Of a stretch of DNA of 32,981 bases, positions 8,327-27,918 are shown piece by piece. The position numbers were made by a program, and so were the translations under genes. Numbering within the stretch: the first letter of the stretch is position 1; the number at the start of each line of letters is the position of its first letter. This DNA comes from Solirubrobacteraceae bacterium (GTDB taxonomy: Bacteria > Actinomycetota > Thermoleophilia > Solirubrobacterales > Solirubrobacteraceae), in assembly GCA_030690545.1 (NCBI GenBank), contig JAUYGN010000132.1:1-32981 (forward strand), written 5' to 3'. Below the pieces are notes generated by a model. It was not told the origin of the DNA and made no database searches. It saw only the letters and a program-made list of their open reading frames with translations.

Positions 8327-11191
8327 TCATTCGCTCAGCGCATCCGCCAGCTCGTGGCGCGACCGCACGTCGAGCTTGCGATACGCGTTGCCCAGATGCC
8401 ACTCGACGGCCTTGCGCGTGACGAACAGCGCCTCGGCGATCTGACGATTCGACAGCCCTTCGATCGCGAGCGCGACGACGCGCCGCTCGCTCGGGCTGAG
8501 CGCGTCGGCGCCACGCAGCGCCGCACGCTGCAGGCGCGCGCCGGCGACCTCGAGCTCGCTCAGCGCGCGCTCCTCGACGAGCCGCGCACCGCAGGCCCGC
8601 GCGATCTCCAGCGCCTCGCCGAGCGCGCGGCCGGCCTCCGAGCGCCGCCCCGCACGACGCAGCGCGGTGCCGAGCTGCAGCTGGGCGCGGCAATGCTCCA
8701 GCCGCGCCTCGGACGGCGCGACGAGCGCCGCGGCCTCCTCGAGCAGCGCGATCGGACGCTCGAGCTTGCCGCCCGCCTCGACGTGCGCGAGCGCCCGCAG
8801 CGCCACCGAGATCGCCCGCGGCGCGCCGAACGCGCGCGCCAGCTCGAGCTCCTCGGTCGCCAGCCGGCGTGCCTCCGCGCGGCGCTCGAGGCTGACGAGC
8901 GCATAGGCCGACGCCGAGCGCCAGCCGGCCAAGCAGGCCGGGTTGACGATCTCGGTCACGACGTCGCGCCAGGACTCGCAATGCGCGAGTGCGTCGCCGG
9001 CCCGCCGCTCGCGCATCGCCAGGCGCACATGCTGCTCGTACCACGGGGCGAGCATCGCCGAGCGCTCGCCGCCCGTCGGGTCGTGGCGTGCGAGCACCGC
9101 CGACGCGGTATCGAGCTCGCCGCGGTCGAGATGGATGCCGGCGACGACTCCACAGGCGACGGACACCAGGTGACGCCAGCCGTAGCGCTGGGCGTCGATC
9201 GCCGCCTCAGCGTCATCGAGCGCCTCGCCGAGCCGTCCCTGCGACCAGCGCGCGACGGCGCGGTAGAGGATCGCGCTCGCGTAGGCGATCGTCGAGCCCC
9301 GGCTGCGCGCCCGATCGGCCGCCGCGGTCAGCACGCGGTCGGCCCATGCCAGCTCGTCGCTCGCGTACAGCGCGGCGCTGACCGCGAACAGCAGGCTGCC
9401 GCCGTCCTGCCCGCCGAGCTGCGTGCGGTCGCCGTCGAGCGCTGCCCGCACGAGCGCGAGCACGTCGTCGCGCGGTGCTCCGCGCAACGTGCCGTGCAGT
9501 CCGTCCATCGCCAGCAGCGCCGCAGGCCGCGTGCCGGCGCCGCCCGGCGGCCCGCCGGACGGCGCGAGCAGCGCCGCGCGGCGCTGCTCGAAGAGCACGC
9601 CGAGCGAGCCCGCCTCGGCCAGCGCCTGCTCGACGGCGGCCGATCCGTCGGCGCCGGCGGCAACGCATCCTCCGGCCTCGTCGAAGCTCGCCAGCGCGGC
9701 GGCGTGGCTGCCGGCGGCAGCCTGCGCGCGCCCCAGCGCGAGCAGCGTCTGTGCACGCTGGTCGTCGCCGACGGCGTAGGCAAGCGACTCCTCGAGGCGG
9801 CCGATCGCGCTCGGCAGTCCGGTTGCCGCCTCGCAAGCGCCGAGCCGGCGCAGCAGCGGCGCGCGCGCGGGTGCCTGCGGTGGCTCCTCCAGCGCCCGTC
9901 GCAGGTAGTTCGCCGCCGACTCGGGGGCGCCCGCGACAAGCGCGCGGCCTGCCGCGACGCCGAGCGTCTCGACGGCCCATGGCTCACCGCTGCCGGGGCT
10001 CAGCAGCAGGTGCGCCGCGACGCGCTCGGGCGCGATCGCGTCGTCACGCAGGATCTCGGCGGCACGGCGGTGCGCGACCGCGCGTTCACCGGTCGCGATG
10101 TCGCTGTACACCGCCGACGCCAGCAGCGGGTGAGCGAACGTCAGCGCATCGGGGTCGGCCGGGCGCAGGATGTCCGACGCCGCGAGCGCGTCGGCCGCAG
10201 CCGCGACGCGAGCTGACTCATGCCCGGTCAGCGCGGCGACGCGGCGCGGCTGCGCGTCGTCGCCGAGCACGGCGACCGCGCGCGCGACTCCGGCGGCGTC
10301 GTCGGACAGGCGCATCAGCCGCACGGCGACCGCGCGCAGCACCGTCTCGGGCGCGAGCGTGCCGATGCGATCGGCGTTCTGCGCGGTCGGCTTCCAGGCC
10401 TCCGCGTGGACGGCGCCGATCAGCTCCTCGAGCAGGAACGCGTTGCCCTCGGTCATCCGCCAGCAGGCGTCGGCGAACGCCTCGTCGGCGCCCGCCAGCC
10501 CGGCGGCGACCATCCGGCGCGCGCCATGGCGCGACAGCGCGGACGGACGGACGCGGCGGCTGGACACATGCGTCGCGATCTGGGCGAGCAGGTCGTCGGG
10601 CGCGCCGGGCTCGCCGAGGCGGCGCGCGGCGATGATCGCGACCCGCATCCGGTCAAGGCGCTGCAGGAGGTACAGCACGAGCCGCAGCGAGGCCCTGTCG
10701 GCCCAGTGCGCGTCGTCGATCACGACGAGCACGGGACCCGTCTCGGCGAGGTTCGACAGCAGCCAGAACAGCCCGTGCATGACCGGGTAGGAGCGATCCT
10801 CGGCCTCGTCGCCGCCCCAGCTCGTCGGACGCTCCAGCAGCGGGCCGGCAAGCGCCGCGGAGCCGGCCAGCAGCCGGTCGCGCGCCTCGTCGTCGGCCCC
10901 CATCAGCAGCGGCTCGAAGAGCTGCAGCGCGATCGCGAACTGAAAGGCGCTCTCCTGCTCGGACGGGCGGGCGCGTAGAACCGTCATCGCCTCGGTGCGA
11001 GCGCGCCCGACGGCAGCGTCCAGCAGCGCGGACTTCCCGACGCCGGCGTGACCTTCGACGAACAGCAGCTCGCCACTCGCTGCCCGCGCGGCCGCCAGCA
11101 ACTCGTCGACCGCTTTCAGTGCCGCCTCGCGCTCGATCAGGCCGGTATCGGACCGTACGCCGTCGGTCACGGCTGGAACACGCTTCGTCAA
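8327..11191 (-). CDS. Large LuxR-family regulator with AAA ATPase domain (LAL type)
   Basis: 954-residue transcriptional regulator of the LAL/MalT-like class. The N-terminal STAND-type ATPase has Walker A GHAGVGKS (residues 47-54) and Walker B VLVVIDDAHWAD (about 155-166). The middle is a long alpha-helical, TPR-like region rich in Ala, Arg and Leu. The C-terminal GerE/LuxR helix-turn-helix reads LSPSERRVVALAIEGLSNRQIAEALFVTRKAVEWHLGNAYRKL. Such proteins bind ATP and a ligand to become active; the ligand cannot be read here. The TTG at 11191 is the furthest upstream start, and a GTG at codon 5 is equally plausible. A -10-like TACGCT on the minus strand at 11242-11247 would give a leader of about 45 bases. 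Confidence 0.9.
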   Translation of the reverse strand: MTKRVPAVTDGVRSDTGLIEREAALKAVDELLAAARAASGELLFVEGHAGVGKSALLDAAVGRARTEAMTVLRARPSEQESAFQFAIALQLFEPLLMGADDEARDRLLAGSAALAGPLLERPTSWGGDEAEDRSYPVMHGLFWLLSNLAETGPVLVVIDDAHWADRASLRLVLYLLQRLDRMRVAIIAARRLGEPGAPDDLLAQIATHVSSRRVRPSALSRHGARRMVAAGLAGADEAFADACWRMTEGNAFLLEELIGAVHAEAWKPTAQNADRIGTLAPETVLRAVAVRLMRLSDDAAGVARAVAVLGDDAQPRRVAALTGHESARVAAAADALAASDILRPADPDALTFAHPLLASAVYSDIATGERAVAHRRAAEILRDDAIAPERVAAHLLLSPGSGEPWAVETLGVAAGRALVAGAPESAANYLRRALEEPPQAPARAPLLRRLGACEAATGLPSAIGRLEESLAYAVGDDQRAQTLLALGRAQAAAGSHAAALASFDEAGGCVAAGADGSAAVEQALAEAGSLGVLFEQRRAALLAPSGGPPGGAGTRPAALLAMDGLHGTLRGAPRDDVLALVRAALDGDRTQLGGQDGGSLLFAVSAALYASDELAWADRVLTAAADRARSRGSTIAYASAILYRAVARWSQGRLGEALDDAEAAIDAQRYGWRHLVSVACGVVAGIHLDRGELDTASAVLARHDPTGGERSAMLAPWYEQHVRLAMRERRAGDALAHCESWRDVVTEIVNPACLAGWRSASAYALVSLERRAEARRLATEELELARAFGAPRAISVALRALAHVEAGGKLERPIALLEEAAALVAPSEARLEHCRAQLQLGTALRRAGRRSEAGRALGEALEIARACGARLVEERALSELEVAGARLQRAALRGADALSPSERRVVALAIEGLSNRQIAEALFVTRKAVEWHLGNAYRKLDVRSRHELADALSE

Positions 11192-15490: not shown

Positions 15491-17179
15491 ATGGCAACCG
15501 CGAACCCCGCCCTCGTCCCCGAGATCACCGTCCACAGCGTCGAGCCCGAGCCGCGCGGCTGGGTCTCCTGGATCACGACGACCGACCACAAGCGGATCGG
15601 GATCCTCTACCTCGTCACGACGTTCGTCTTCTTCCTGCTGGGCGGCGTCGAGGCGCTGCTGATGCGCGTCCAGCTCGGCGCCCCGGACAACACCTTCCTG
15701 ACGCCGGCGACGTACAACGCGCTCTTCACGCTGCACGGCACGACGATGATCTTCCTCTTCGTCGTGCCGATCATGGCCGGCTTTGGCAACTACTTCCTGC
15801 CGCTGATGATCGGCGCCCGCGACATGGCGTTCCCGAAGCTCAACGCGCTGTCGTACTGGCTGCTGCTGTCGGGCGGGATCGTCTTCTACGTCTCGCTGTT
15901 CTTCTCGCCGCCGGAGGCCGGCTGGACGTCGTATGCGCCGTTATCGGGGAGCGTCTACTCGCCCGGCAGCGGGATCGACGCATGGATCTTCCTGATCCAC
16001 CTGACCGGCATCTCGTCGCTGATCGGGGCGATCAACTTCTACGCGACGATCGCGAACATGCGCGCGCCCGGGATGGGCTGGGGCCGCCTGCCGCTGTTCG
16101 TCTGGTCGCTGCTCGTCTACGCGATCCTGCTGATCCTCGCGCTGCCGGTGATCGCGGGCGCCGTCACGCTGCTGCTGACCGATCGCCACTTCGGGACCGG
16201 CTTCTTCGACCAGGGCCAGGGCGGTGATCCGCTGCTGTGGCAGCACCTGTTCTGGTTCTTCGGCCACCCCGAGGTCTACATCATGATCCTGCCGGGCTTC
16301 GGGATGATCTCGGAGATCCTGCCGGTCTTCGCGCGCAAGCCGATCTTCGGCTACAAGGCGATCGCCGCGGCGACGGTCGTGATCGCGTTCCTCGCCCTGC
16401 TCGTCTGGGCGCACCACATGTTCTCGACGCCGAGCGCGACGATCGTGCTCGTCTTCTTCATGGTCAGCTCGTTCTTGATCGCGATCCCGACGGGCGTGAA
16501 GATCTTCAACTGGATCGCGACGCTGTGGCGCGGGACGGTCGAGTTCAAGACGCCGCTGATCTTCTCGGTCGGCTTCATCTCGGTCTTTTTGATCGGCGGC
16601 ATCACGGGCATCTTCCTGGCCGTCTTCCCGGTCGACTGGCAGCTGACCGACACGTACTTCGTCGTCGCCCACCTGCACTACGTGCTCGTCGGCGGCTCGG
16701 TCTTCGCGATCTTCGCGGGCATCTACTACTGGTATCCGAAGATCACCGGCCGGATGCTGAGCGAGTCGCTGGGCAAGTGGTCGTTCGGGCTGATGTACGT
16801 CGGCATCAACGTCACCTTCCTGATCCAGCACTCGATCGGCCTGGACGGCATGCCGCGACGCGTCTACGAGTACCCCGACGTCGGCAACCTGGCGCTCTAC
16901 AACCTGATCTCGACGATCGGCTCGTTCATGCTCGGGCTCGGCGTCGTGGTGACCGCGTGGAACGTCGTGCGCTCGCTGAAGAAGGGCGCGCGCTCGGGCC
17001 CGGACCCGTGGAAGGCGAACACGCTCGAGTGGTTCCTGCCCTCGCCGCCGCCGGCGAACAACTTCGACGTGATCCCGCGCGTGCGCTCGGTCGAGCCGAT
17101 GAAGGACATCCGTCGCCAGATCGCCCGTCAGTCCGAGACCCCGGTCGAGCTGGGCGCGGCGGAGCCGACGCCCCGGTGA
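15491..17179 (+). CDS. ctaD: Cytochrome c oxidase subunit I, A1-type (cluster 1)
   Basis: 562-residue haem-copper core subunit with about 12 transmembrane helices. Metal ligands are visible: His in FTLHGTTMIF (low-spin haem), His259 of GHPEVY with Tyr263 as the cross-linked pair, WAHHMF (CuB), and VVAHLHYVL (both haems). Glu261 of GHPEVY is the helix VI proton-relay glutamate that defines A1-type oxidases. The D-channel aspartate (GARDMAFPKLN) and K-channel IPTGVK are present. It ends in TGATG, sharing an A with ctaB. No subunit III gene follows in this cluster. Haem type (a or o) cannot be read from sequence. Confidence 0.96.
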   Translation: MATANPALVPEITVHSVEPEPRGWVSWITTTDHKRIGILYLVTTFVFFLLGGVEALLMRVQLGAPDNTFLTPATYNALFTLHGTTMIFLFVVPIMAGFGNYFLPLMIGARDMAFPKLNALSYWLLLSGGIVFYVSLFFSPPEAGWTSYAPLSGSVYSPGSGIDAWIFLIHLTGISSLIGAINFYATIANMRAPGMGWGRLPLFVWSLLVYAILLILALPVIAGAVTLLLTDRHFGTGFFDQGQGGDPLLWQHLFWFFGHPEVYIMILPGFGMISEILPVFARKPIFGYKAIAAATVVIAFLALLVWAHHMFSTPSATIVLVFFMVSSFLIAIPTGVKIFNWIATLWRGTVEFKTPLIFSVGFISVFLIGGITGIFLAVFPVDWQLTDTYFVVAHLHYVLVGGSVFAIFAGIYYWYPKITGRMLSESLGKWSFGLMYVGINVTFLIQHSIGLDGMPRRVYEYPDVGNLALYNLISTIGSFMLGLGVVVTAWNVVRSLKKGARSGPDPWKANTLEWFLPSPPPANNFDVIPRVRSVEPMKDIRRQIARQSETPVELGAAEPTPR

Positions 17180-18081
17180 TGGAGGCCTCGCAGGCCACCG
17201 TCCTGCAGCCCGAGGTGGCCGGCGGATGGCGAACGGTCGTCGCCGACTACGTGCAGCTGACCAAGCCGAAGGTCCAGTCGCTGCTGCTGCTGACGACCGT
17301 CTGCTCGATGCTGATCGCGGGCGATCCGTCGTTCGGCCTGATCGTCCTGACCGTGGTCGGCGGCTACCTCTCGGCCGGAGGGGCCGGCGCGGTCAACCAC
17401 TACTACGACCGCGACATCGACGCGCTGATGCCGCGGACGGCCAACCGGCCGGTCCCGGCGGGACGCGTCGCGCCCCGCGCGGCGCTGCTCTACGGCGTCG
17501 TGCTGGCGGCGCTGTCGTTCGTCCTGCTGGCGACGACCGTGAACCTGCTGGCGGCCTCGCTGGCGCTGTCGGGCTTCTTCGGCTATGTCTTCGTCTACAC
17601 CATCTGGCTCAAGCGCCGCACGCCGCAGAACATCGTGATCGGCGGAGCCGCGGGCGCGATCCCGCCGCTCGTCGGCTGGGCGGCCGTCACCGGAACCCTC
17701 GGCGGCATGCCGCTGTACCTGTTCGCGATCGTGTTCTTCTGGACGCCGCCGCACTTCTGGGCGCTGTCGCTGCTGATGAAGGACGAGTACGGACGCGTCG
17801 GCGTGCCGATGCTGCCGGTCGTCCGCGGCGAGCACGAGACGCGCAAGCAGATCCTGCTCTACGCCTTCCTGCTGTACGCCGTCACGCAGCTGCCGTTCTG
17901 CGCCGGCGGGCTGGGCACCGTCTACCTCGTCTGCTCGCTCGTCCTCGGCGCGATGTTCATCGGCGGCGCGTACGTGCTGCTCAAGCGCGCCGACCGCCGC
18001 AGCGCGCTGCGCCTGTATCTCTTCTCGCTCGCGTACCTCGCGCTGCTGTTCGCGGCGATGGTGCTCGACGTCAAGCTGTAG
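17179..18081 (+). CDS. ctaB: Protoheme IX farnesyltransferase (haem O synthase)
   Basis: 300-residue UbiA-type prenyltransferase that makes haem O from haem B and farnesyl diphosphate. Haem O is the precursor of haem A used in the oxidases encoded on either side. The first aspartate-rich motif is N73-HYY-D77-RDI-D81 followed by ALMPRTANRPVPAG. The second region is FWTPPHFWALSLLMKDEYGRVGVPMLPVVRG. About nine hydrophobic segments are seen. Its ATG overlaps the ctaD stop (TGATG), so translation is coupled. No haem A synthase (ctaA) gene is in the window. Its TAG stop forms part of a -10-like TAGGGT. Confidence 0.96.
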   Translation: MEASQATVLQPEVAGGWRTVVADYVQLTKPKVQSLLLLTTVCSMLIAGDPSFGLIVLTVVGGYLSAGGAGAVNHYYDRDIDALMPRTANRPVPAGRVAPRAALLYGVVLAALSFVLLATTVNLLAASLALSGFFGYVFVYTIWLKRRTPQNIVIGGAAGAIPPLVGWAAVTGTLGGMPLYLFAIVFFWTPPHFWALSLLMKDEYGRVGVPMLPVVRGEHETRKQILLYAFLLYAVTQLPFCAGGLGTVYLVCSLVLGAMFIGGAYVLLKRADRRSALRLYLFSLAYLALLFAAMVLDVKL

Positions 18082-18084
18082 GGT
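18079..18084 (+). promoter_or_regulatory. Putative internal -10 box overlapping the ctaB stop codon
   Basis: TAGGGT includes the ctaB TAG stop and lies 10 bases before the ATG of the 36-codon gene at 18095. The same hexamer precedes the zinc-ribbon gene at 25412. It could add expression of the two small membrane proteins. Confidence 0.3.
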
Positions 18085-18094
18085 TCACGCCGCA

Positions 18095-18205
18095 ATGGAT
18101 CAGAAGCTCGCCCGCAAGAACCTCCGCTCCGGCCTCCTCGGTGCCGTCGTGGCCCTGTTCATGTTCGGTATGACGTTCGTCGCCTCGGCGATCTACGTCT
18201 CCTGA
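18095..18205 (+). CDS. 36-residue single-helix membrane microprotein (cluster 1)
   Basis: A complete small ORF, MDQKLARKNLRSGLLG… ending IYVS. It has a basic N-terminus (KLARKNLR, inside-positive) and one hydrophobic helix of about 21 residues (LLGAVVALFMFGMTFVASAIY). It lies 13 bases after ctaB and 3 bases before the next small gene, on the operon strand. Small one-helix proteins are common extra subunits or assembly factors of cytochrome oxidases; the exact family is not recognised. Evidence that it is real: clean start-to-stop frame, operon position and membrane-protein composition. Confidence 0.68.
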   Translation: MDQKLARKNLRSGLLGAVVALFMFGMTFVASAIYVS

Positions 18206-18602: not shown

Positions 18603-18992
18603 ATGGAGATCCCGATCCAACGTCCCGCCACGGTCCGGCATCGCACCAGCCTCTTCTGCGATGCCGTCGCGATCGTGGAAGCTGAGTACGGCTCCGATCT
18701 GTCGCTCGACGAGATCGCCCGGCGCGTGGCCTCCTCACGCCGCCAACTGCAGCGCTCCTATGCCGAGATCGGCAAGACGACGTTCCGTGAGCACCTCACG
18801 GCCGTTCGCATGGAGCGCGCAGCGGAACTGCTGACGACGCGCGGCCTGACGGTGCGCGAGGTCGCGCAGCGCGTCGGCTACCGCCAGCCGGCGCAGTTCG
18901 CCAAGGCGTTCCGGCGCCACCACGGCCTGGCGCCGTCGGCATTCCGCGACACGCGGCGCTTCCGCGCAGCGGCCGTCGCCGCCGCGGCCTGA
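18603..18992 (+). CDS. Single-domain AraC-family transcriptional regulator
   Basis: 129-residue DNA-binding protein made almost only of the AraC/XylS double helix-turn-helix: LSLDEIARRVASSRRQLQRSYAEIGKTTFREHLTAVRMERAAELL, then LTVREVAQRVGYRQPAQFAKAFRRHHGLAPSAFRDTRR. The usual N-terminal ligand/dimerisation domain is missing; only about 30 residues precede the HTH. It therefore resembles stand-alone MarA/SoxS/Rob-like regulators, whose activity depends on their amount. It sits between the two oxidase clusters on the same strand, with a dyad upstream. A role in switching oxidases is attractive but inferred from position only. Confidence 0.87.
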   Translation: MEIPIQRPATVRHRTSLFCDAVAIVEAEYGSDLSLDEIARRVASSRRQLQRSYAEIGKTTFREHLTAVRMERAAELLTTRGLTVREVAQRVGYRQPAQFAKAFRRHHGLAPSAFRDTRRFRAAAVAAAA

Positions 18993-19174
18993 GCCACACC
19001 CGCGCTCGCCGATAGCGGCCCGGGCCGCCGCCACGGGTCGTCCGTGAACGTTTGCGCGGGCCCCGCCAGCGTCGCCGCGCCGGACGCTGCGGTACCGGAT
19101 CGCGTCCGTCGCGCGCACCACATAGGATGCCGGGCCGCATGAGCCAGGGAAGAGGGCGCCAGGAGCGCACGCCA
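18993..19174. promoter_or_regulatory. Intergenic control region of oxidase cluster 2
   Basis: The gap between the AraC-type gene and the second ctaC holds three dyads: the palindrome GCGGCCCGGGCCGC (19015-19028), CACGG-N5-CCGTG (19032-19046) and CAGCGTC-N9-GACGCTG (19067-19089). A -10-like TAGGAT follows at 19123-19128. This would give a leader of about 40 bases carrying AGGAG (19161-19165) before the GTG at 19175. The first palindrome may end the AraC transcript; the others could be operators. Confidence 0.4.
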
Positions 19175-20185
19175 GTGATGTGGATGGTGATCCACGGCCT
19201 GATCGCCTCGGCGATCGGCATCGCCGTCGGCCTGGCGATCAACTGGTTCCCGGAGTCGGCCTCCACGCAGGCCGGCCCGATCGATCGCCTCTACGACATC
19301 CTGATCTGGGTCTCGGTGCCCGTCTTCGTGACGGTGACGATCATCGTGCTCTTCAGCGTGCAGAACTTCCGCATGCGGCCCGGGGAGGAGCAGCTCGACG
19401 GCCCGCCGATCCACGGCAACACGCGGCTGGAGGTCATCTGGACCGCGATTCCCGCGATCATCCTCGTCGTCCTGTGCGGCTATGCCTGGGTCGTCCTGCG
19501 CGACATCGAGGAGGCGCAGGCCGGCGAGATGCGCGTCAACGTCGTCGGCCAGCAGTTCGCCTGGACGTTCGAGTATCCCCAGGCCGACGGCGAGCCGGTC
19601 AGATCGAAGCACCTCTATCTCCCGAAGGACCAGCCGGTGCGCTTCTCCGTCCGGGCGATCGACGTCATCCACGACTTCTGGGTTCCGGCCTTTCGCATGA
19701 AGATCGACGCGGTTCCCGGCATCGAGACGGGGTATCGCATCACGCCCAACCGCCTCGGCACCTATCCGGTCGTCTGCGCGGAGCTGTGCGGCCTCGGCCA
19801 CGCGGTCATGCGCGCGACGACCCGCGTCGTCGAGCCGGCCGCCTTCGAGCGGTGGATCGCCCAGCAGAAGGCGCCCGCACAGGCGAGCGAAGACGGCGAG
19901 GTCGACGGCAAGGCGCTGTTCACCGACGGCAACGGCGCGGCGACCGCCTGCGGCGCCTGCCACACGCTCGCCGACGCCGCCACGTCGAGCGCGACCGGCC
20001 CCGATCTCGACGAGGTCCTGGCGGACAAGGACGCCGCCTACATCGAGCGCGAGATCGTCGATCCGAATGCCGAGATCACGCCGGGATTCCAGACCGGAAT
20101 CATGCCGCCGAACTACGGCGATACGCTCTCGTCGGACGAGCTCGAAGCTCTCGTGACGTATCTCGGCGAGGTGGCCGGGAAGTGA
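19175..20185 (+). CDS. ctaC: Cytochrome c oxidase subunit II fused to cytochrome c (caa3-type, cluster 2)
   Basis: 336-residue subunit II of caa3 type. Two N-terminal membrane helices (MVIHGLIASAIGIAVGLAINW and ILIWVSVPVFVTVTIIVLF) precede the CuA cupredoxin domain with Cys201, Cys205, His209 and Met212 (CAELCGLGHAVM). A C-terminal class I cytochrome c domain follows with CGACH at 259-263 and a likely axial Met310 in IMPPNYG. It accepts electrons directly through the tethered haem c. The start is set at GTG 19175 because AGGAG lies 9 bases before it. ATG 19139, just after a -10-like TAGGAT, would add 12 residues. Confidence 0.93.
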   Translation: MMWMVIHGLIASAIGIAVGLAINWFPESASTQAGPIDRLYDILIWVSVPVFVTVTIIVLFSVQNFRMRPGEEQLDGPPIHGNTRLEVIWTAIPAIILVVLCGYAWVVLRDIEEAQAGEMRVNVVGQQFAWTFEYPQADGEPVRSKHLYLPKDQPVRFSVRAIDVIHDFWVPAFRMKIDAVPGIETGYRITPNRLGTYPVVCAELCGLGHAVMRATTRVVEPAAFERWIAQQKAPAQASEDGEVDGKALFTDGNGAATACGACHTLADAATSSATGPDLDEVLADKDAAYIEREIVDPNAEITPGFQTGIMPPNYGDTLSSDELEALVTYLGEVAGK

Positions 20186-20214: not shown

Positions 20215-22131
20215 ATGGTCGCCAAGTTCCGCGGACCGGGCATGTACAGAGCAGCGCTGGGCACCGCCCTCGGCACGGCGCTCTCGTACGCGATCATCGG
20301 CATCTTCCGCAGCTGGTACGGCCTCGACCCGCTGTTCAAGGGCTACGCCGTCCTCGAGCTGTCGCTGTTCCTCGCCCCGATCGGCTTCCTGATCGGGCTC
20401 GGGGCGTTCGACTACTGGTTCCGCTGGGCCGCCGGCCGGCCGACGATCCCCGACGACCACTCCAGCCACGGCGCGCACTCCTGGCGCGACTACTTCAAGG
20501 TCAACACCGACCACAAGGTCATCGGCATCCAGTACGTCGTGACCTCGTTCGTCTTCTTCTTCATCGGCGGGCTGTTCGCGATGCTGATGCGCGCCGAGCT
20601 TGCCCAGCCGGGCCGCCAGTTCGTCGACCCGAGCACGTTCAACGGCCTCTTCAGCGTCCACGCGTCGCTGCTGATCTTCCTCTTCATCATCCCGGTCTTC
20701 GCGGGCATGGCGAACTACGTCCTGCCGCTCATGATCGGTGCGCCGGACATGGCGTTCCCGCGCCTGAACGCGCTGTCGTTCTGGATGCTGCCGCTGGCCG
20801 GGATCATGATGCTGATGTCCTTCGGGGCGCCGGGCGGCTCGTTCGCCAGCGGCTGGACGGCATACGCGCCGCTGTCGGTGACAGCGCCGGAAGGACAGGT
20901 GTTCTTCACGATCGGCGTGCAGTTCGCGGGCGCGTCGTCGATCGCGACCGCGCTGAACTTCCTCGTGACGATCATCACGATGCGTGCGCCCGGGATGAGC
21001 TTCTTCCGGATGCCGCTGCTCGTGTGGGCGAACTTCTCGACCTCGCTGCTCGTCGTCATCGCGACGCCGTTCATCGCCGTCTCGCAGTTCATGGTCCTCT
21101 TCGACCGCGCGCTGGGCTTCAACTTCTTCAACCCGACCGGCGGCGGCGACGTGCTGATGTACCAGCACATCTTCTGGTTCTACTCGCACCCGGCGGTCTA
21201 CATCATGATGCTGCCCGGGTTCGGGATCATCTCCGAGATCCTCGCCGTCAAGTCGCGAAAGCCGATCTTCGGCTACCGGATGATGGCGTTCTCGCTGCTG
21301 GCGATCGTCGTGCTCGGCTTCACGGTCTGGGCGCACCACATGTTCGTCTCGGGCATGCAGGACTGGATCCGCGTGCCGATGATGATCACGACGGCGATCA
21401 TCGCCGTGCCGACCGGCATCAAGATCTTCTCCTGGCTGGCGACGCTGTGGCGAGGGGTGCTGCACCTCGACACGCCGATGCTGTTCTCGCTGGGCTTCCT
21501 GACGATGTTCACGCTCGGCGGCATCTCCGGCGTGATGCTCGCGATCATCCCCGTGACGATCCACGTCAGCGACACGTACTTCATCGTCGCCCACATCCAC
21601 TACGTGCTGTTCGGCGGCTCGCTGCTGACGATCTTCGCCGGCGTCTACTACTGGTTCCCGAAGATGACCGGGCGGATGTACGACGAGCGCCTCGGCAAGC
21701 TGCACTTCTGGACGACCTTCATCTTCTTCAACGCGACGTTCGCCCCGATGCACGTGATCGGCATCCAGGGCATGCCGCGCCGCGTCGCCGACTATGCCGA
21801 GCAGTGGGCGGGCTGGAACATGGCGATCTCGATCATGAGCTTCTTCCTCGGCCTCAGCGCGCTCCTCTTCGCCTACAACATGATCGTCTCCTGGCGCGGC
21901 GGCCCGCGTGCGGACTCCAATCCCTGGAACGCGCTCACGCTGGAGTGGCTCGTCACGTCGCCGCCGCCGATCTTCAACTTCGACGCGATCCCGACCGTCG
22001 TCGGCGGCCCCTACGAGTACGGCGTGCCCGGCGCGGTGCACGGCGTGCTGAAGGGCGCCGAGGTGCCTCAGCCCGCGGGCGCGACAGCGTCCGGCGCGAG
22101 CCACGGATCAGCCACGAAGGACCAGGAGTAG
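20215..22131 (+). CDS. ctaD: Cytochrome c oxidase subunit I, A2-type with N-terminal extension (cluster 2)
   Basis: 638-residue core subunit. About 100 extra N-terminal residues contain two hydrophobic segments (AALGTALGTALSYAIIGIF and LELSLFLAPIGFLIGLGAF) before the usual start at DHKVIGIQYV. Metal ligands are intact: SVHASLLIF, His325/Tyr329 in YSHPAVY, WAHHMF and VAHIHYVL. Helix VI has Tyr323-Ser324-His-Pro-Ala327 where A1 oxidases have GHPE; loss of Glu with a YS pair is the mark of A2-type oxidases such as the Rhodothermus caa3 enzyme. The D-region GAPDMAFPRLN and K-channel IPTGIK are kept. The C-terminus is a polar tail (SGASHGSATKDQE). Confidence 0.95.
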   Translation: MVAKFRGPGMYRAALGTALGTALSYAIIGIFRSWYGLDPLFKGYAVLELSLFLAPIGFLIGLGAFDYWFRWAAGRPTIPDDHSSHGAHSWRDYFKVNTDHKVIGIQYVVTSFVFFFIGGLFAMLMRAELAQPGRQFVDPSTFNGLFSVHASLLIFLFIIPVFAGMANYVLPLMIGAPDMAFPRLNALSFWMLPLAGIMMLMSFGAPGGSFASGWTAYAPLSVTAPEGQVFFTIGVQFAGASSIATALNFLVTIITMRAPGMSFFRMPLLVWANFSTSLLVVIATPFIAVSQFMVLFDRALGFNFFNPTGGGDVLMYQHIFWFYSHPAVYIMMLPGFGIISEILAVKSRKPIFGYRMMAFSLLAIVVLGFTVWAHHMFVSGMQDWIRVPMMITTAIIAVPTGIKIFSWLATLWRGVLHLDTPMLFSLGFLTMFTLGGISGVMLAIIPVTIHVSDTYFIVAHIHYVLFGGSLLTIFAGVYYWFPKMTGRMYDERLGKLHFWTTFIFFNATFAPMHVIGIQGMPRRVADYAEQWAGWNMAISIMSFFLGLSALLFAYNMIVSWRGGPRADSNPWNALTLEWLVTSPPPIFNFDAIPTVVGGPYEYGVPGAVHGVLKGAEVPQPAGATASGASHGSATKDQE

Positions 22132-22137
22132 GCCACG

Positions 22138-22974
22138 ATGTCCAAGCACATCCTCGTCGTCGCGAACCAGACGATCGGCGGCGCCAAGCTGCTGGACCTG
22201 GTGCGCGAGCGCGCCAAGGAGCCCGACACGAGCTTCACGCTCGTGATCCCGATGACGCGCCCGCGCTCGGGCTACGTCATCTACGACGACGCCGTGCGCG
22301 ACTCGGCACAGGTGCGCCTGGACCTGACGCTGTCCTACCTGCGCGGCGTCGACGTCGTCGCCAGCGGTGAGCTCGGCGACGAGGACCCCTACACCGCGAC
22401 GCTCGACGCGATCGACGAGTACAAGCCCGACGAGGTCATCATCTCGACGCTGCCGCTGTCGTCCTCGGGCTGGCTGCGACGCGACCTGATCGAGCGCATC
22501 GAGGACGGCACCGGCGTGCCCGTCACGCACGTCATCTCCGACATGGACGCCGACGGCCTGCCGTTCAACGTCACGCTCGTCGTCGCCAACGTGACCGCCG
22601 GCCGCGGGACGCTGCGCGCCCGCATGAAGGAGGTCGCCGCCGAGGTCGACGACATGCTCTTCATCGTCGTCGTCCCGCTGCAGTCCCACGGCGACGGCCG
22701 CGCGGCCGCGGTCGCGCGTGCGCGGCTGGGCAACACGCTGGACAAGATGCGCCGCGAGGGTCTGCTCGTCGCCGGCATGGTCGGCGATCCCGACCCGTAC
22801 ACCGCGACGATGAACGCGCTGCAGTTCTACAAGGTGTCGCGGATCATCGTCTCGACGCTGCCGGTCACGCGCTCGGGCTGGCTGCGCGCCGACCTCATCA
22901 CGCGGCTGCGCAAGGCCTCCAACATCGCCGTCGAGCACATCGTCGCCGAGCAGCCCGCCGAGGCGGCCTCCTGA
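22138..22974 (+). CDS. Tandem universal-stress-like Rossmann protein inside the oxidase operon
   Basis: 278-residue soluble protein built of two similar halves (about 1-137 and 138-278). Both start with a strand ILVVAN/TLVVAN. Both contain GD-DPYTAT-(L/M)-(D/N)A and end with (V/I)I(I/V)STLP…SGWLR-DLI-R. This is the layout of duplicated universal stress proteins, but the classic GxxG…GS(T/S) nucleotide loop is not evident and STLP…SGW takes its place. It lies 6 bases after ctaD and overlaps ctaE by 3 bases (TGATG), so it is made with the oxidase. Possible jobs are assembly, redox or nucleotide sensing; none is proven. Confidence 0.78.
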   Translation: MSKHILVVANQTIGGAKLLDLVRERAKEPDTSFTLVIPMTRPRSGYVIYDDAVRDSAQVRLDLTLSYLRGVDVVASGELGDEDPYTATLDAIDEYKPDEVIISTLPLSSSGWLRRDLIERIEDGTGVPVTHVISDMDADGLPFNVTLVVANVTAGRGTLRARMKEVAAEVDDMLFIVVVPLQSHGDGRAAAVARARLGNTLDKMRREGLLVAGMVGDPDPYTATMNALQFYKVSRIIVSTLPVTRSGWLRADLITRLRKASNIAVEHIVAEQPAEAAS

Positions 22975-23618
22975 TGGAGGCCGCCGGCATCAGCGCGGGC
23001 ATCGCGCTCGACCACCACGACGACGGGCACGACGACCACCACCACGGGCCTCCTCCGGCGAACCGCAGCTCGCGCGTGTCGCACGAGGTGCTCGGGATGC
23101 TGCTGTTCATCATCTCGGAGATCATGGTGTTCGCGGCATTCTTCGCCGCGTACTTCTTCATCCGGCTCGTGGCCGAGGGCCACCGCTGGTTCCCCTTCGA
23201 GGGCTACGAGCTGCCGGTCGCGATCGCCGGCGTCAACACCGCGATCCTGCTCAGCTCGTCGCTGACGATGCACTGGGCGCAGGTCTCGATCAAGAACGGC
23301 AACCGCTTCGGGCTGAAGGTCGGCATGGTGCTCACCTCGCTGCTCGGCGCGACCTTCCTGTTCATCCAGATCAACGAGTACATCCACATCGGCTTCTCGC
23401 CGCAGGACCACGCGCAGGGCACGATCTTCTACGGCCTGACGGGCCTGCACGGCGCCCACGTGCTCGTCGGCCTGTCGCTACTGATCATCGTCACCGTGCG
23501 GGCGTTCCGCGGGCACTTCTCGCCCGAGCACCACCACGGCGTCGAGATCCCCGGCATCTACTGGCATTTCGTCGACGTCATGTGGATCGTCGTCTACACG
23601 GCGATCTACATCATCTAG
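22974..23618 (+). CDS. ctaE: Cytochrome c oxidase subunit III
   Basis: 214-residue membrane protein with five hydrophobic helices. Family landmarks are GMLLFIISEIMVFAAFFAAYFFIR near the start, NTAILLSSSLTMHWA, YGLTGLHGAHVLVGL, and the C-terminal IPGIYWHFVDVMWIVVYTAIYI with the conserved WHFVDxxW. The cytoplasmic N-terminus is rich in His and Asp (HHDDGHDDHHHG), unlike most homologues, and may bind metal. It is the only subunit III gene in the window although two subunit I genes are present, and it belongs to cluster 2 by coupling to the preceding gene. Confidence 0.95.
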   Translation: MEAAGISAGIALDHHDDGHDDHHHGPPPANRSSRVSHEVLGMLLFIISEIMVFAAFFAAYFFIRLVAEGHRWFPFEGYELPVAIAGVNTAILLSSSLTMHWAQVSIKNGNRFGLKVGMVLTSLLGATFLFIQINEYIHIGFSPQDHAQGTIFYGLTGLHGAHVLVGLSLLIIVTVRAFRGHFSPEHHHGVEIPGIYWHFVDVMWIVVYTAIYII

Positions 23619-24543: not shown

Positions 24544-25287
24544 CTACTCGACGGTCAGCGTCCCCTCCATGCCGCCCTCGCGATGGCCGGCGACGGTGCA
24601 GTAGAAGGCGTACTCGCCGGCCGCGAGCGTCACGTCGACCCTCGAGACGCCGCCGTCCTGCACGACCTCGCCGCGCTCGTCGACGCCGTTGCCCTCGATC
24701 GCGATGTCGTGCGGGACGGAGGACTCGTTCTCGGAGGTGATCTCCAGCGGGCCGGGCGGAGCCGTCGCGACCTTCGTGATGTAGGCGAGCTGGCCACCGG
24801 GATCGGCGGGCAGCGCGAGCACGCCGTCCTCTGCCGCGACGGGCTCGCCGTCGCCCGCCGCCGCGACGGCGCTGCCGAGCTTGCCGGCGTCCTCGCCGGG
24901 CAGGGCGGCTACGGTCGCGACGTAGGCGGCGACGTCGCTGGCGAGCTTGCCGGTCACGAGATCCGCAGGCATGTAGCCGGGATGGTCCGGCGGCAGGATC
25001 GCCGGATAGAGGATCTGCTCACGCACGACGCCGTGGATCGTGCCGCGCCCCAGGCCATCGTTGATCGATTGGCGGAAGGCCTCGTCGAGGTCCGGGCCCG
25101 CGATGCCCTTCGTGTCCGCGCGAGCGAGCACGTGGCAGGACCCGCACTTCTCGACGAAGGCCTGCTTGCCGGCGATCAGATCGGCGTTGCTGCCGACGTC
25201 GTCGGCCCCGCAGGCGCTCAATCCCGCGGCGAGAACCCCGCACGCGGCAAGGCCCAGAAATCTCGTCCTCAATGGTGTCGGGGTCAT
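24544..25287 (-). CDS. Lipoprotein fusing cytochrome c and cupredoxin domains
   Basis: 247-residue exported electron-transfer protein. The lipobox LSAC (Cys26) anchors it to the outer face of the membrane. Residues about 35-125 form a class I cytochrome c with CGSCH (48-52) and a likely Met ligand in HPGYMPADLV. After a linker (EDAGKLGSAVAAAGDGEP), residues about 155-247 form a plastocyanin-like domain with all type 1 copper ligands: His193 (VPHDIAIEG), Cys230, His235 and Met240 (YCTVAGHREGGM). It lies close to the two oxidase clusters on the opposite strand and is a candidate donor or relay for one of them. A -10-like TAGACT lies 11 bases before the ATG. Confidence 0.9.
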   Translation of the reverse strand: MTPTPLRTRFLGLAACGVLAAGLSACGADDVGSNADLIAGKQAFVEKCGSCHVLARADTKGIAGPDLDEAFRQSINDGLGRGTIHGVVREQILYPAILPPDHPGYMPADLVTGKLASDVAAYVATVAALPGEDAGKLGSAVAAAGDGEPVAAEDGVLALPADPGGQLAYITKVATAPPGPLEITSENESSVPHDIAIEGNGVDERGEVVQDGGVSRVDVTLAAGEYAFYCTVAGHREGGMEGTLTVE

Positions 25288-26141: not shown

Positions 26142-26855
26142 TCATCGCCGACTTGCCGCGCTGCTCCTCGCCGTCGAGCGCTGCGGGGTGGGATTGGGAA
26201 TGAACGTCGCGCTATAGGTGACTCGCGTCGTCTTGTAGAGGCATCCGAACTCTGCCGAGCCGCGTCGTCCGATGAGCGCCGTCTGCTGAGACGTGATGGT
26301 GGGATCGCCGCAGGACCTGCTCGTCCGGCTGGCGCGCCACGACGTGTCGGCGCCGAGCCCGAGTTGCAGCACCGGTGCCCACGAGGGCACCGTGAGGCCG
26401 ACGTACTGCCCCTTCCTGATCGGGAGCGAGCGCGCGAGCGGGAACTGCACGCGCTGACCGAAGTAGCCGTTGAGCTTCTCGATCGCCCCCTTCGCGACGA
26501 CGCGGCGCACGAGCTTCGGCCGTGCCTCGAGAACGACGACGGTCGCCTGCGACTCGCCTCCGAGCCGCTGGGCGAAGAACGCCGTCTGCTTCGGTCCTGG
26601 ATTGCCGAGCGCGATCGTCCAAGCGACGATTCGACCGTTGGCCGGTGCCTGATACAGGGTCCGGTCCGGTCCGACCTTCGCCTGGTAGCCGGTGGTGCGG
26701 CTGACGGCCTGGCAGTTGTCGGGACAGCTACCGCTGACGCCCTCGGGAAGCTGGCCGAGTTCGACGATCTGGGCAGGCGCGACGGCCGGGAAGAGCACCA
26801 ACGCCGCGATGGCTGGGAGTGTGGCTGTGCTGAGGAGGACTCGAAGACGTCGCAT
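26142..26855 (-). CDS. Secreted protein of unknown function
   Basis: 237-residue exported protein. The N-terminus MRRLRVLLSTATLPAIAALVLFPAVAPAQ is a clear signal peptide with an APA-Q cleavage site. The mature part is rich in beta-type sequence and has four cysteines (SCPDNC near the start, RSCGD and FGCLY later), suggesting disulfides. It ends with a Ser/Arg-rich tail. I do not recognise a family. ATG 26855 is chosen because it starts the signal peptide; the frame is open further upstream. It is divergent from the ABC exporter gene, with 67 bases between. Confidence 0.7.
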   Translation of the reverse strand: MRRLRVLLSTATLPAIAALVLFPAVAPAQIVELGQLPEGVSGSCPDNCQAVSRTTGYQAKVGPDRTLYQAPANGRIVAWTIALGNPGPKQTAFFAQRLGGESQATVVVLEARPKLVRRVVAKGAIEKLNGYFGQRVQFPLARSLPIRKGQYVGLTVPSWAPVLQLGLGADTSWRASRTSRSCGDPTITSQQTALIGRRGSAEFGCLYKTTRVTYSATFIPNPTPQRSTARSSAASRR

Positions 26856-26922
26856 ATACCCGCATTCAACACGAGCTTCCCGCCGTTTGTTGCGTTCCCC
26901 CCTGCCCCGAAAGAAGTTGTGC

Positions 26923-27918
26923 GTGCAATATCCTGGCCCGATCGCAGCGATCGAGGTCATCGGGTTGGAGCGACGGTTCAAGGGCGCCGTCAAGGCGGTG
27001 GCCGGCATCGACCTCGAGGTCGCCGCCGGCGAGGTCTACGGCTTTCTCGGTCCCAACGGCGCGGGCAAGACGACGACCGTGCGAATGCTCGTCACGCTGC
27101 TGCGACCCACCGGCGGGCAGGCGCTCGTCGCAGGGTTCGACGTCGCGACGCAGCCCGCCGACGTGCGCCGCAGGATCGGCGTCGCGCTGCAGGAGGCGGC
27201 GCTCGACCCGCTGATGACCGGCAGCGAGCTGATCGAGCTGCAGGCGACGCTGCACGGCATCGCGCCTCGCACGGTGCGCGCCCGCGGCGCCGAGCTGATC
27301 GAGCGCGTCGGGCTCAGCCAGGCCGCCGGTCGCCGCGTCGGGACGTACTCGGGCGGCATGCGCCGGCGCCTGGACCTCGCGATGGCGCTGATCCACGAGC
27401 CCGAGGTCCTGTTCCTCGACGAGCCGACGACCGGGCTCGACCCGACGTCGCGCCTGACGCTGTGGGAGGAGGTGCGCCGGCTGCGCGACGAGGGCACGAC
27501 GGTCTTCCTCACGACCCAGTACCTCGAGGAGGCCGACCAGCTGGCGGACCGGCTCGGCATCATCGCCGCCGGACGGATCGTCGCAACGGGCACGCCGGCG
27601 GCGCTGAAGGCCGAGGTCGGCCGCCCGCATCTGGACCTCGTCCTCGCGCCCGGCACGGACCTGCGGCGCGCGCACGAGGTCGTCACGCGCTTCGGCGACC
27701 ACCGCCCCGTGGCCGACGGCTGCCACCTGTCGATCGAGATCGCGCGCGGCGCCGGCGACATCGCCCCGATCCTGCGCGCGCTCGACGACGCGGACGTCGC
27801 GGTGGCCGAGCTCGAGCTCAGGCAGCCGACGCTCGACGACGTCTTTCTCGCCAAGACCGGTGAGCACCTCGAGGGCTCCGGCAACCCCCACTCCGAGGCC
27901 GCGGCGGAGCTCGTGTGA
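26923..27918 (+). CDS. ABC exporter ATP-binding protein (DrrA-like)
   Basis: 331-residue ATPase of the DrrA/CcmA-type ABC-2 exporters. It has Walker A GPNGAGKT (43-50), a Q-loop region (IGVALQEAALDPLMTG), signature YSGGMRRRLDLA, Walker B VLFLDEPTTGLDP and the switch histidine replaced by Gln in LTTQYLEEAD, which is usual for this subfamily. The C-terminal TLDDVFLAKTG is the DrrA-specific end. GTG 26923 is chosen because AAGAAG lies about 7 bases before it; a TTG at 26917 is an alternative. It overlaps the first permease by 4 bases. The exported compound (drug, lipid or glycan) cannot be predicted. Confidence 0.93.
   Translation: MQYPGPIAAIEVIGLERRFKGAVKAVAGIDLEVAAGEVYGFLGPNGAGKTTTVRMLVTLLRPTGGQALVAGFDVATQPADVRRRIGVALQEAALDPLMTGSELIELQATLHGIAPRTVRARGAELIERVGLSQAAGRRVGTYSGGMRRRLDLAMALIHEPEVLFLDEPTTGLDPTSRLTLWEEVRRLRDEGTTVFLTTQYLEEADQLADRLGIIAAGRIVATGTPAALKAEVGRPHLDLVLAPGTDLRRAHEVVTRFGDHRPVADGCHLSIEIARGAGDIAPILRALDDADVAVAELELRQPTLDDVFLAKTGEHLEGSGNPHSEAAAELV

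What the first reader, a model, noticed from the sequence alone, without database searches (positions are those of the whole stretch)
24544..25287. Membrane-anchored cytochrome c-cupredoxin fusion next to the oxidases
One polypeptide has a lipobox (Cys26), haem c motif CGSCH and a complete type 1 copper site (His193, Cys230, His235, Met240). Two redox centres in one tethered protein would make a short wire from donor to CuA or to the fused haem c of the A2 enzyme.
Basis: partly seen in the sequence, partly recalled or inferred. Interest (0 to 1): 0.58.

Follow-up and report, generated by a model that had tools for sequence, protein, structure and literature searches.

The report
Lipoprotein electron carrier with swappable domain
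A membrane-tethered protein of a soil bacterium joins a haem domain to a copper domain beside the genes of an oxygen-consuming enzyme, and in related bacteria the copper half is replaced by a second haem domain, in one genus apparently copied from that enzyme itself, which marks the protein as the enzyme's likely electron feeder.

Summary
It encodes a 247-residue lipoprotein with lipobox Cys26, a class I cytochrome c (CGSCH 48-52, likely axial Met106) and a type 1 copper domain (His193, Cys230, His235, Met240). All haem and copper ligands are invariant in 51 aligned relatives. Of 121 loci read in its order, 73 carry cytochrome-cupredoxin and 45 cytochrome-cytochrome at the same place. Where COX3 of the A2 (caa3-type) oxidase lies in the stretch (103 of 121), the carrier faces it convergently in 102. 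Outside the order the first domain also occurs alone, in the oxidase operon. So the second domain is an exchangeable slot. In one genus the cupredoxin was apparently replaced by a copy of oxidase subunit II's own haem c domain (shared cysteine-bearing insertion). This supports the idea of a tethered wire to the A2 oxidase and speaks against a copper chaperone. It does not show which domain touches CuA, nor any link to the A1 oxidase. A suspected exclusion rule (second haem on either the carrier or subunit II) has many exceptions and fails a tree-aware test. New variant of a known kind (Bacillus CccA/CccB-like anchored cytochrome c).

The parts
24544..25287 (-). carrier gene, 247 aa plus stop: lipoprotein cytochrome c-cupredoxin fusion
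25210..25287 (-). signal peptide and lipobox LSAC, lipid-bearing Cys26
   Evidence: sequence; acylation not tested
24898..25188 (-). cytochrome c domain, residues about 34-130; CGSCH at 25132-25146, Met106 at 24970-24972
   Evidence: fold like SorU cytochrome
24547..24840 (-). cupredoxin domain, residues about 150-247; His193 24709-24711, Cys230 24598-24600, His235 24583-24585, Met240 24568-24570
   Evidence: fold like auracyanin
19016..20185 (+). CtaC2: A2 oxidase subunit II, CuA motif plus C-terminal cytochrome c; upstream limit of the open frame, start codon not settled
20215..22131 (+). CtaD2: A2 oxidase subunit I (YSHPAV)
22138..22974 (+). unnamed protein between CtaD2 and COX3, conserved with the cluster
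22974..23618 (+). COX3, convergent with the carrier

Best explanation
The protein is the dedicated, lipid-anchored electron carrier of the A2 (caa3-type) cytochrome oxidase in Solirubrobacterales. It does the job that the small membrane-anchored cytochromes CccA/CccB do between the bc complex and caa3 in Bacillus: the constant front haem c is reduced by the bc complex, and the second redox domain, here a type 1 copper domain, passes the electron to subunit II, to its fused haem c or straight to CuA. Shown: domain make-up, ligands, gene linkage, and the exchange of the second domain between copper and haem kinds. Inferred: membrane anchoring, cofactor loading, direction of flow, which domain touches subunit II, and the direction of the domain copying in genus g25.
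For: Ligands invariant in 51 relatives. The carrier faces COX3 convergently in 102 of 103 loci where COX3 is in the stretch, 121 read. Outside the order, 13 of 13 f5 stretches read have the front domain alone on the strand of CtaC-CtaD-COX3, directly after COX3. Second domain is cupredoxin in 73 and cytochrome c in 45 of 121. Carrier second cytochrome domains interleave with CtaC haem domains in the tree, apart from the front domains. In genus g25 all 5 carrier second cytochrome domains share a cysteine-bearing insertion with 5 of 7 readable CtaC haem domains, and all 12 g25 domains form one group (96/90). One clear bc complex in the genome. Precedent of the CccA/CccB-bc-caa3 supercomplex in PMC9145763 (passages read). 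Confident two-domain model.
Against: No expression, redox or binding data. The gene is convergent to the oxidase and has a HAD-type gene between, so it is not co-transcribed with it in the window. CtaC2 has a fused haem c of its own in 49 of 70 cupredoxin cases, so a separate carrier could be dispensable there. 31 of 158 genomes of the order give no match at E 1e-12, incomplete ones among them. Other small cytochromes c and cupredoxins exist in the genome.
Confidence: 0.68

Rival explanations
1. Copper delivery: the cupredoxin half is a chaperone or copper buffer that helps to build CuA or CuB of the neighbouring oxidases.
For: Gene lies beside copper enzymes; cupredoxin-like chaperones such as PCuAC exist (PMC9145763, passage).
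Against: In 45 of 121 loci the same slot holds a cytochrome c that cannot carry copper; the ligand set is type 1 His-Cys-His-Met, invariant in 51 relatives, not a Met/His-rich chaperone motif.
Confidence: 0.08
2. Carrier for another enzyme (for example a nitrite reductase or an alternative complex) that merely lies near the oxidase.
For: The best profile matches among solved structures are domains of three-domain nitrite reductases, and auracyanin serves other chains (recalled).
Against: Conserved convergent place by COX3 in 102 of 103, operon position in f5, shared domain with CtaC in g25. Nitrite reductase genes were not searched for.
Confidence: 0.15
3. Strict division of labour: the second haem c sits either on the carrier or on subunit II, never on both, and the cupredoxin appears when subunit II keeps the haem.
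For: Raw counts in 110 loci with both readable: cytochrome-cytochrome carriers with haem-less CtaC 32, with haem 8; cupredoxin carriers with haem CtaC 49, without 21; Fisher p 4e-7 ignoring relatedness.
Against: 29 of 110 loci break the rule. On the CtaD2+COX3 tree (84 rows with both traits, before the readings) only 3 contrasts, at most 5, exist and the sign test is not significant.
Confidence: 0.05

Closest known systems
CccA/CccB membrane-anchored cytochromes c of Bacillus subtilis
   Same: Small cytochrome c anchored at the membrane, working between bc complex and caa3 (PMC9145763); here too lipobox, oxidase linkage, bc complex with fused cytochrome c
   Different: Single haem and no second domain; NCBIfam c551 model gives 22.7 bits against a cut-off of 118
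caa3 oxidase subunit II (CuA plus C-terminal cytochrome c)
   Same: Its haem c domain is related to the second domain of sister carriers
   Different: The carrier has no CuA domain; subunit II has no type 1 copper domain
Three-domain copper nitrite reductases
   Same: Natural tethering of cytochrome c or cupredoxin as redox partner (PMC13324648, passages)
   Different: The carrier has no nitrite reductase core; it is two electron-transfer domains only
Auracyanin
   Same: Best structural match of the copper domain: 6kol, Z 12.8, rmsd 1.9, 95 residues, 30% identity
   Different: Single-domain carrier; its role in photosynthetic Chloroflexi is recalled

Membership tests
Plastocyanin/azurin-type cupredoxin (PF00127) | Profile match over the curated cut-off and His-Cys-His-Met ligands | tested here: met
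   23.9 bits against 21.2; ligands invariant in 51. Note: the six-frame search with PF00127 listed 3 other places and not this one
Plastocyanin/azurin-type cupredoxin (PF00127) | Bound type 1 copper | not testable with these tools
   needs spectra
Class I cytochrome c (PF00034) | CXXCH, distal Met, cytochrome c fold | tested here: met
   fold match to SorU 4pwa, Z 11.2, rmsd 1.9, 82 residues
Class I cytochrome c (PF00034) | Profile score over the cut-off | tested here: inconclusive
   21.1 bits against 21.3 in hmmscan; 23.1 bits, over the cut-off, in the genome search
Bacterial lipoprotein | Signal peptide with lipobox Cys | tested here: met
   LSAC26; a lipobox-like pattern in 118 of 121 carriers by script
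Bacillus cytochrome c551 (CccB, NF045774) | NCBIfam model over its cut-off | tested here: not met
   22.7 bits against 118; so 'works like', not member
Bacillus cytochrome c551 (CccB, NF045774) | Electron transfer between bc complex and caa3 | not testable with these tools
   needs biochemistry
caa3 oxidase subunit II | COX2 profile and CuA motif | tested here: not met
   no COX2 match for the carrier
Three-domain copper nitrite reductase | Two-cupredoxin nitrite reductase core | tested here: not met
   247 aa with one cupredoxin and one cytochrome domain

The most novel reading that the evidence does not exclude
The second domain of this carrier is the docking and donor head for the A2 oxidase: a plug-in slot in which a type 1 copper domain and the oxidase's own haem c domain are functionally interchangeable. 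Lineages have repeatedly moved haem heads between subunit II and the carrier, so nature has already done the domain-swap experiment for the last step before CuA.
Probability: 0.35. Interest if true: 0.72.

Novelty: new variant of a known kind. Interest (0 to 1): 0.55.

Why it matters
Copper and haem carriers are known to replace each other as whole proteins (plastocyanin and cytochrome c6, recalled). Here the exchange is of one domain inside a tethered carrier beside its likely acceptor, and in one genus the source of the new domain appears to be the acceptor's own subunit. That gives natural chimaeras with which to test which surface delivers electrons to CuA, and why copper or haem is chosen.

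Tried and rejected
An exclusion rule between a second haem on the carrier and a haem on CtaC looked nearly strict at first (21 to 1) but fell when relocated or unlinked CtaC genes were read (8 of 40 with haem), and the tree-aware test is not significant.

A single origin of all carrier second cytochrome c domains: not rejected with all 114 domains (p-AU 0.103, log-likelihood 51 lower); rejected with 44 rows that I chose after seeing the large tree (p 7.5e-5; 7.7e-5 with columns filled in 70% or more, and 0.031 without g25). The domain gives about 95 columns, so deep forks are unsure. The short second domains of f4 and most f7 carriers look like another source.

No NCBIfam model names the whole protein of the window. 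The structure rows shown each cover one domain, which proves nothing about the fusion. Nine paper searches: none of the listings showed this fusion or the domain exchange, and five phrase forms for a cytochrome-cupredoxin fusion gave no paper; the library lacks most subscription journals. Origin of the cupredoxin domain from stand-alone cupredoxins (up to 51% identity) was noticed but no tree was made. My first reading of window 17226-18173 as a conserved unknown was out of frame; 17179-18081 is a UbiA-type prenyltransferase.

Full report
WHAT IS THERE. The frame at 24544-25287 is a minus-strand gene for a 247-residue protein. It has a lipobox at Cys26, CGSCH at 48-52, a likely axial Met106, and the full type 1 copper set His193, Cys230, His235, Met240. 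Pfam gives Copper-bind over its cut-off and Cytochrom_C a hair under it. An alignment of 51 mature relatives keeps every haem and copper ligand. AlphaFold2 on that alignment gives a confident two-domain model (mean pLDDT 92.9, pTM 0.86); the front half resembles the cytochrome SorU (Z 11.2, 82 residues, rmsd 1.9) and the back half auracyanin (Z 12.8, 95 residues, rmsd 1.9).

SURROUNDINGS. On the other strand lie two haem-copper oxidase clusters: an A1-type (CtaC1, CtaD1 with GHPEV, then a UbiA-type prenyltransferase, probably haem O synthase) and an A2-type (CtaC2 with a fused cytochrome c, CtaD2 with YSHPAV, an unnamed protein, COX3). A HAD-type gene lies between COX3 and the carrier. The genome has one clear bc complex whose second large frame joins the cytochrome b C-terminal part to a cytochrome c (362-aa frame). 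Pfam's cytochrome c model finds six places in the genome, the carrier among them.

HOW WIDESPREAD. 60 of 61 genomes (the window's own and 60 relatives) give some match at E 0.001. With the front part as query, 127 of 158 genomes of the order match at E 1e-12. Named hits are a Solirubrobacteraceae MAG, Solirubrobacter taibaiensis and Candidatus Solirubrobacter pratensis (3 loci). In a class sample 99 of 160 genomes match, 65 of them outside the order; none of the listed matches outside the order spans both domains, though that list was cut. In a phylum sample 24 of 296 match; the only one outside the class covers the cupredoxin part alone. So the cytochrome-cupredoxin fusion was seen only in this order.

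THE SLOT. I read 121 loci of the order (the window, 40; not every matched genome was taken). By script, 73 carry cytochrome plus cupredoxin, 45 cytochrome plus cytochrome, 2 show one domain only (in G012 the frame is broken, in G042 the single domain looks natural) and 1 is cut by a contig end. COX3 lies in the stretch in 103 of 121; the carrier faces it convergently in 102 and runs the same way in 1, with a median gap of 1,322 bases. In 20 further stretches (19 outside the order, 1 f4 genome of the order), the 13 f5 ones have the front domain alone on the strand of CtaC-CtaD-COX3, one of the six f7 ones has one cytochrome domain and five have two, and the f4 one has two.

WHERE THE SECOND HAEM COMES FROM. 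In a tree of 138 cytochrome c domains the 42 front domains form one group (SH-aLRT 89), while second domains of carriers (45) and C-terminal domains of CtaC (44) interleave. The clearest case is genus g25. Of 9 genomes read there, 4 have a cupredoxin carrier and 5 a cytochrome one. All 5 second cytochrome domains and 5 of the 7 readable CtaC haem domains share an insertion with two cysteines; one of those 5 CtaC genes belongs to G110, whose carrier still has the cupredoxin. Front domains of the two kinds of g25 carriers, one of each in the tree, group together. The simplest reading is that the haem domain of CtaC was copied into the carrier in place of the cupredoxin; G111 has the domain on the carrier only, and G108, G113, G114 and G115 have it on both proteins. 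The direction is inferred. Similar but weaker signs exist for f1g6, f2 and G266. Tests of a single origin are mixed: p-AU 0.103 with 114 domains, 7.5e-5 with 44 rows chosen after the large tree, 0.031 without g25.

WHAT IT DOES. The exchange of a copper head for a haem head, while the front haem, the lipobox and the place stay, fits an electron carrier and not a copper chaperone. The constant neighbour and the shared domain point to the A2 oxidase as acceptor. In B. [quoted passage not shown] I propose the same job here with two centres. Flow from haem to copper to subunit II is inferred from domain order and the g25 case only.

AGAINST. An exclusion rule between carrier and CtaC haems did not hold: 8 of 40 cytochrome-cytochrome carriers go with a haem CtaC and 21 of 70 cupredoxin carriers with a haem-less one; the independent-contrast test is not significant. 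31 of 158 genomes give no match at the threshold, incomplete assemblies among them. The carrier is not in the oxidase operon in this order.

NOVELTY. Anchored cytochromes, caa3 fusions and three-domain nitrite reductases are known (passages read). I found no report of this carrier or of the domain exchange in nine searches of the open library, which is not proof. I file it as a new variant of a known kind.

Noticed in passing
22138-22974 (+): Unnamed 278-aa protein between CtaD2 and COX3, conserved with the cluster, no Pfam or NCBIfam name; in the f5 genome G267 a related stretch (34% identity over 129 residues) is fused behind the COX1 domain of CtaD.
   Followed up: partly
18603-18992 (+): Small 129-aa AraC-type HTH protein between the two oxidase clusters, 89-96% identical within the genus and found beside CtaC2 in many relatives; possible regulator of the A2 oxidase.
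   Followed up: no
26142-27008 (-): Putative 288-aa secreted protein without a Pfam match that stays near the carrier in many of the relatives.
   Followed up: no
L146 493-1656 and L139 7590-8804 (G158, G159): The haem-bearing CtaC has moved to the other side of the carrier gene, away from CtaD2.
   Followed up: partly
L157 2001-3023 (G162): A frame matching the cupredoxin part lies directly before the carrier's first domain on the same strand, overlapping the CtaC frame of the other strand; the contig ends inside the carrier.
   Followed up: no
L069 (G012) 9459-10066: Carrier frame is broken between the cytochrome and cupredoxin parts, which lie in different frames; error or decay not settled.
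   Followed up: no
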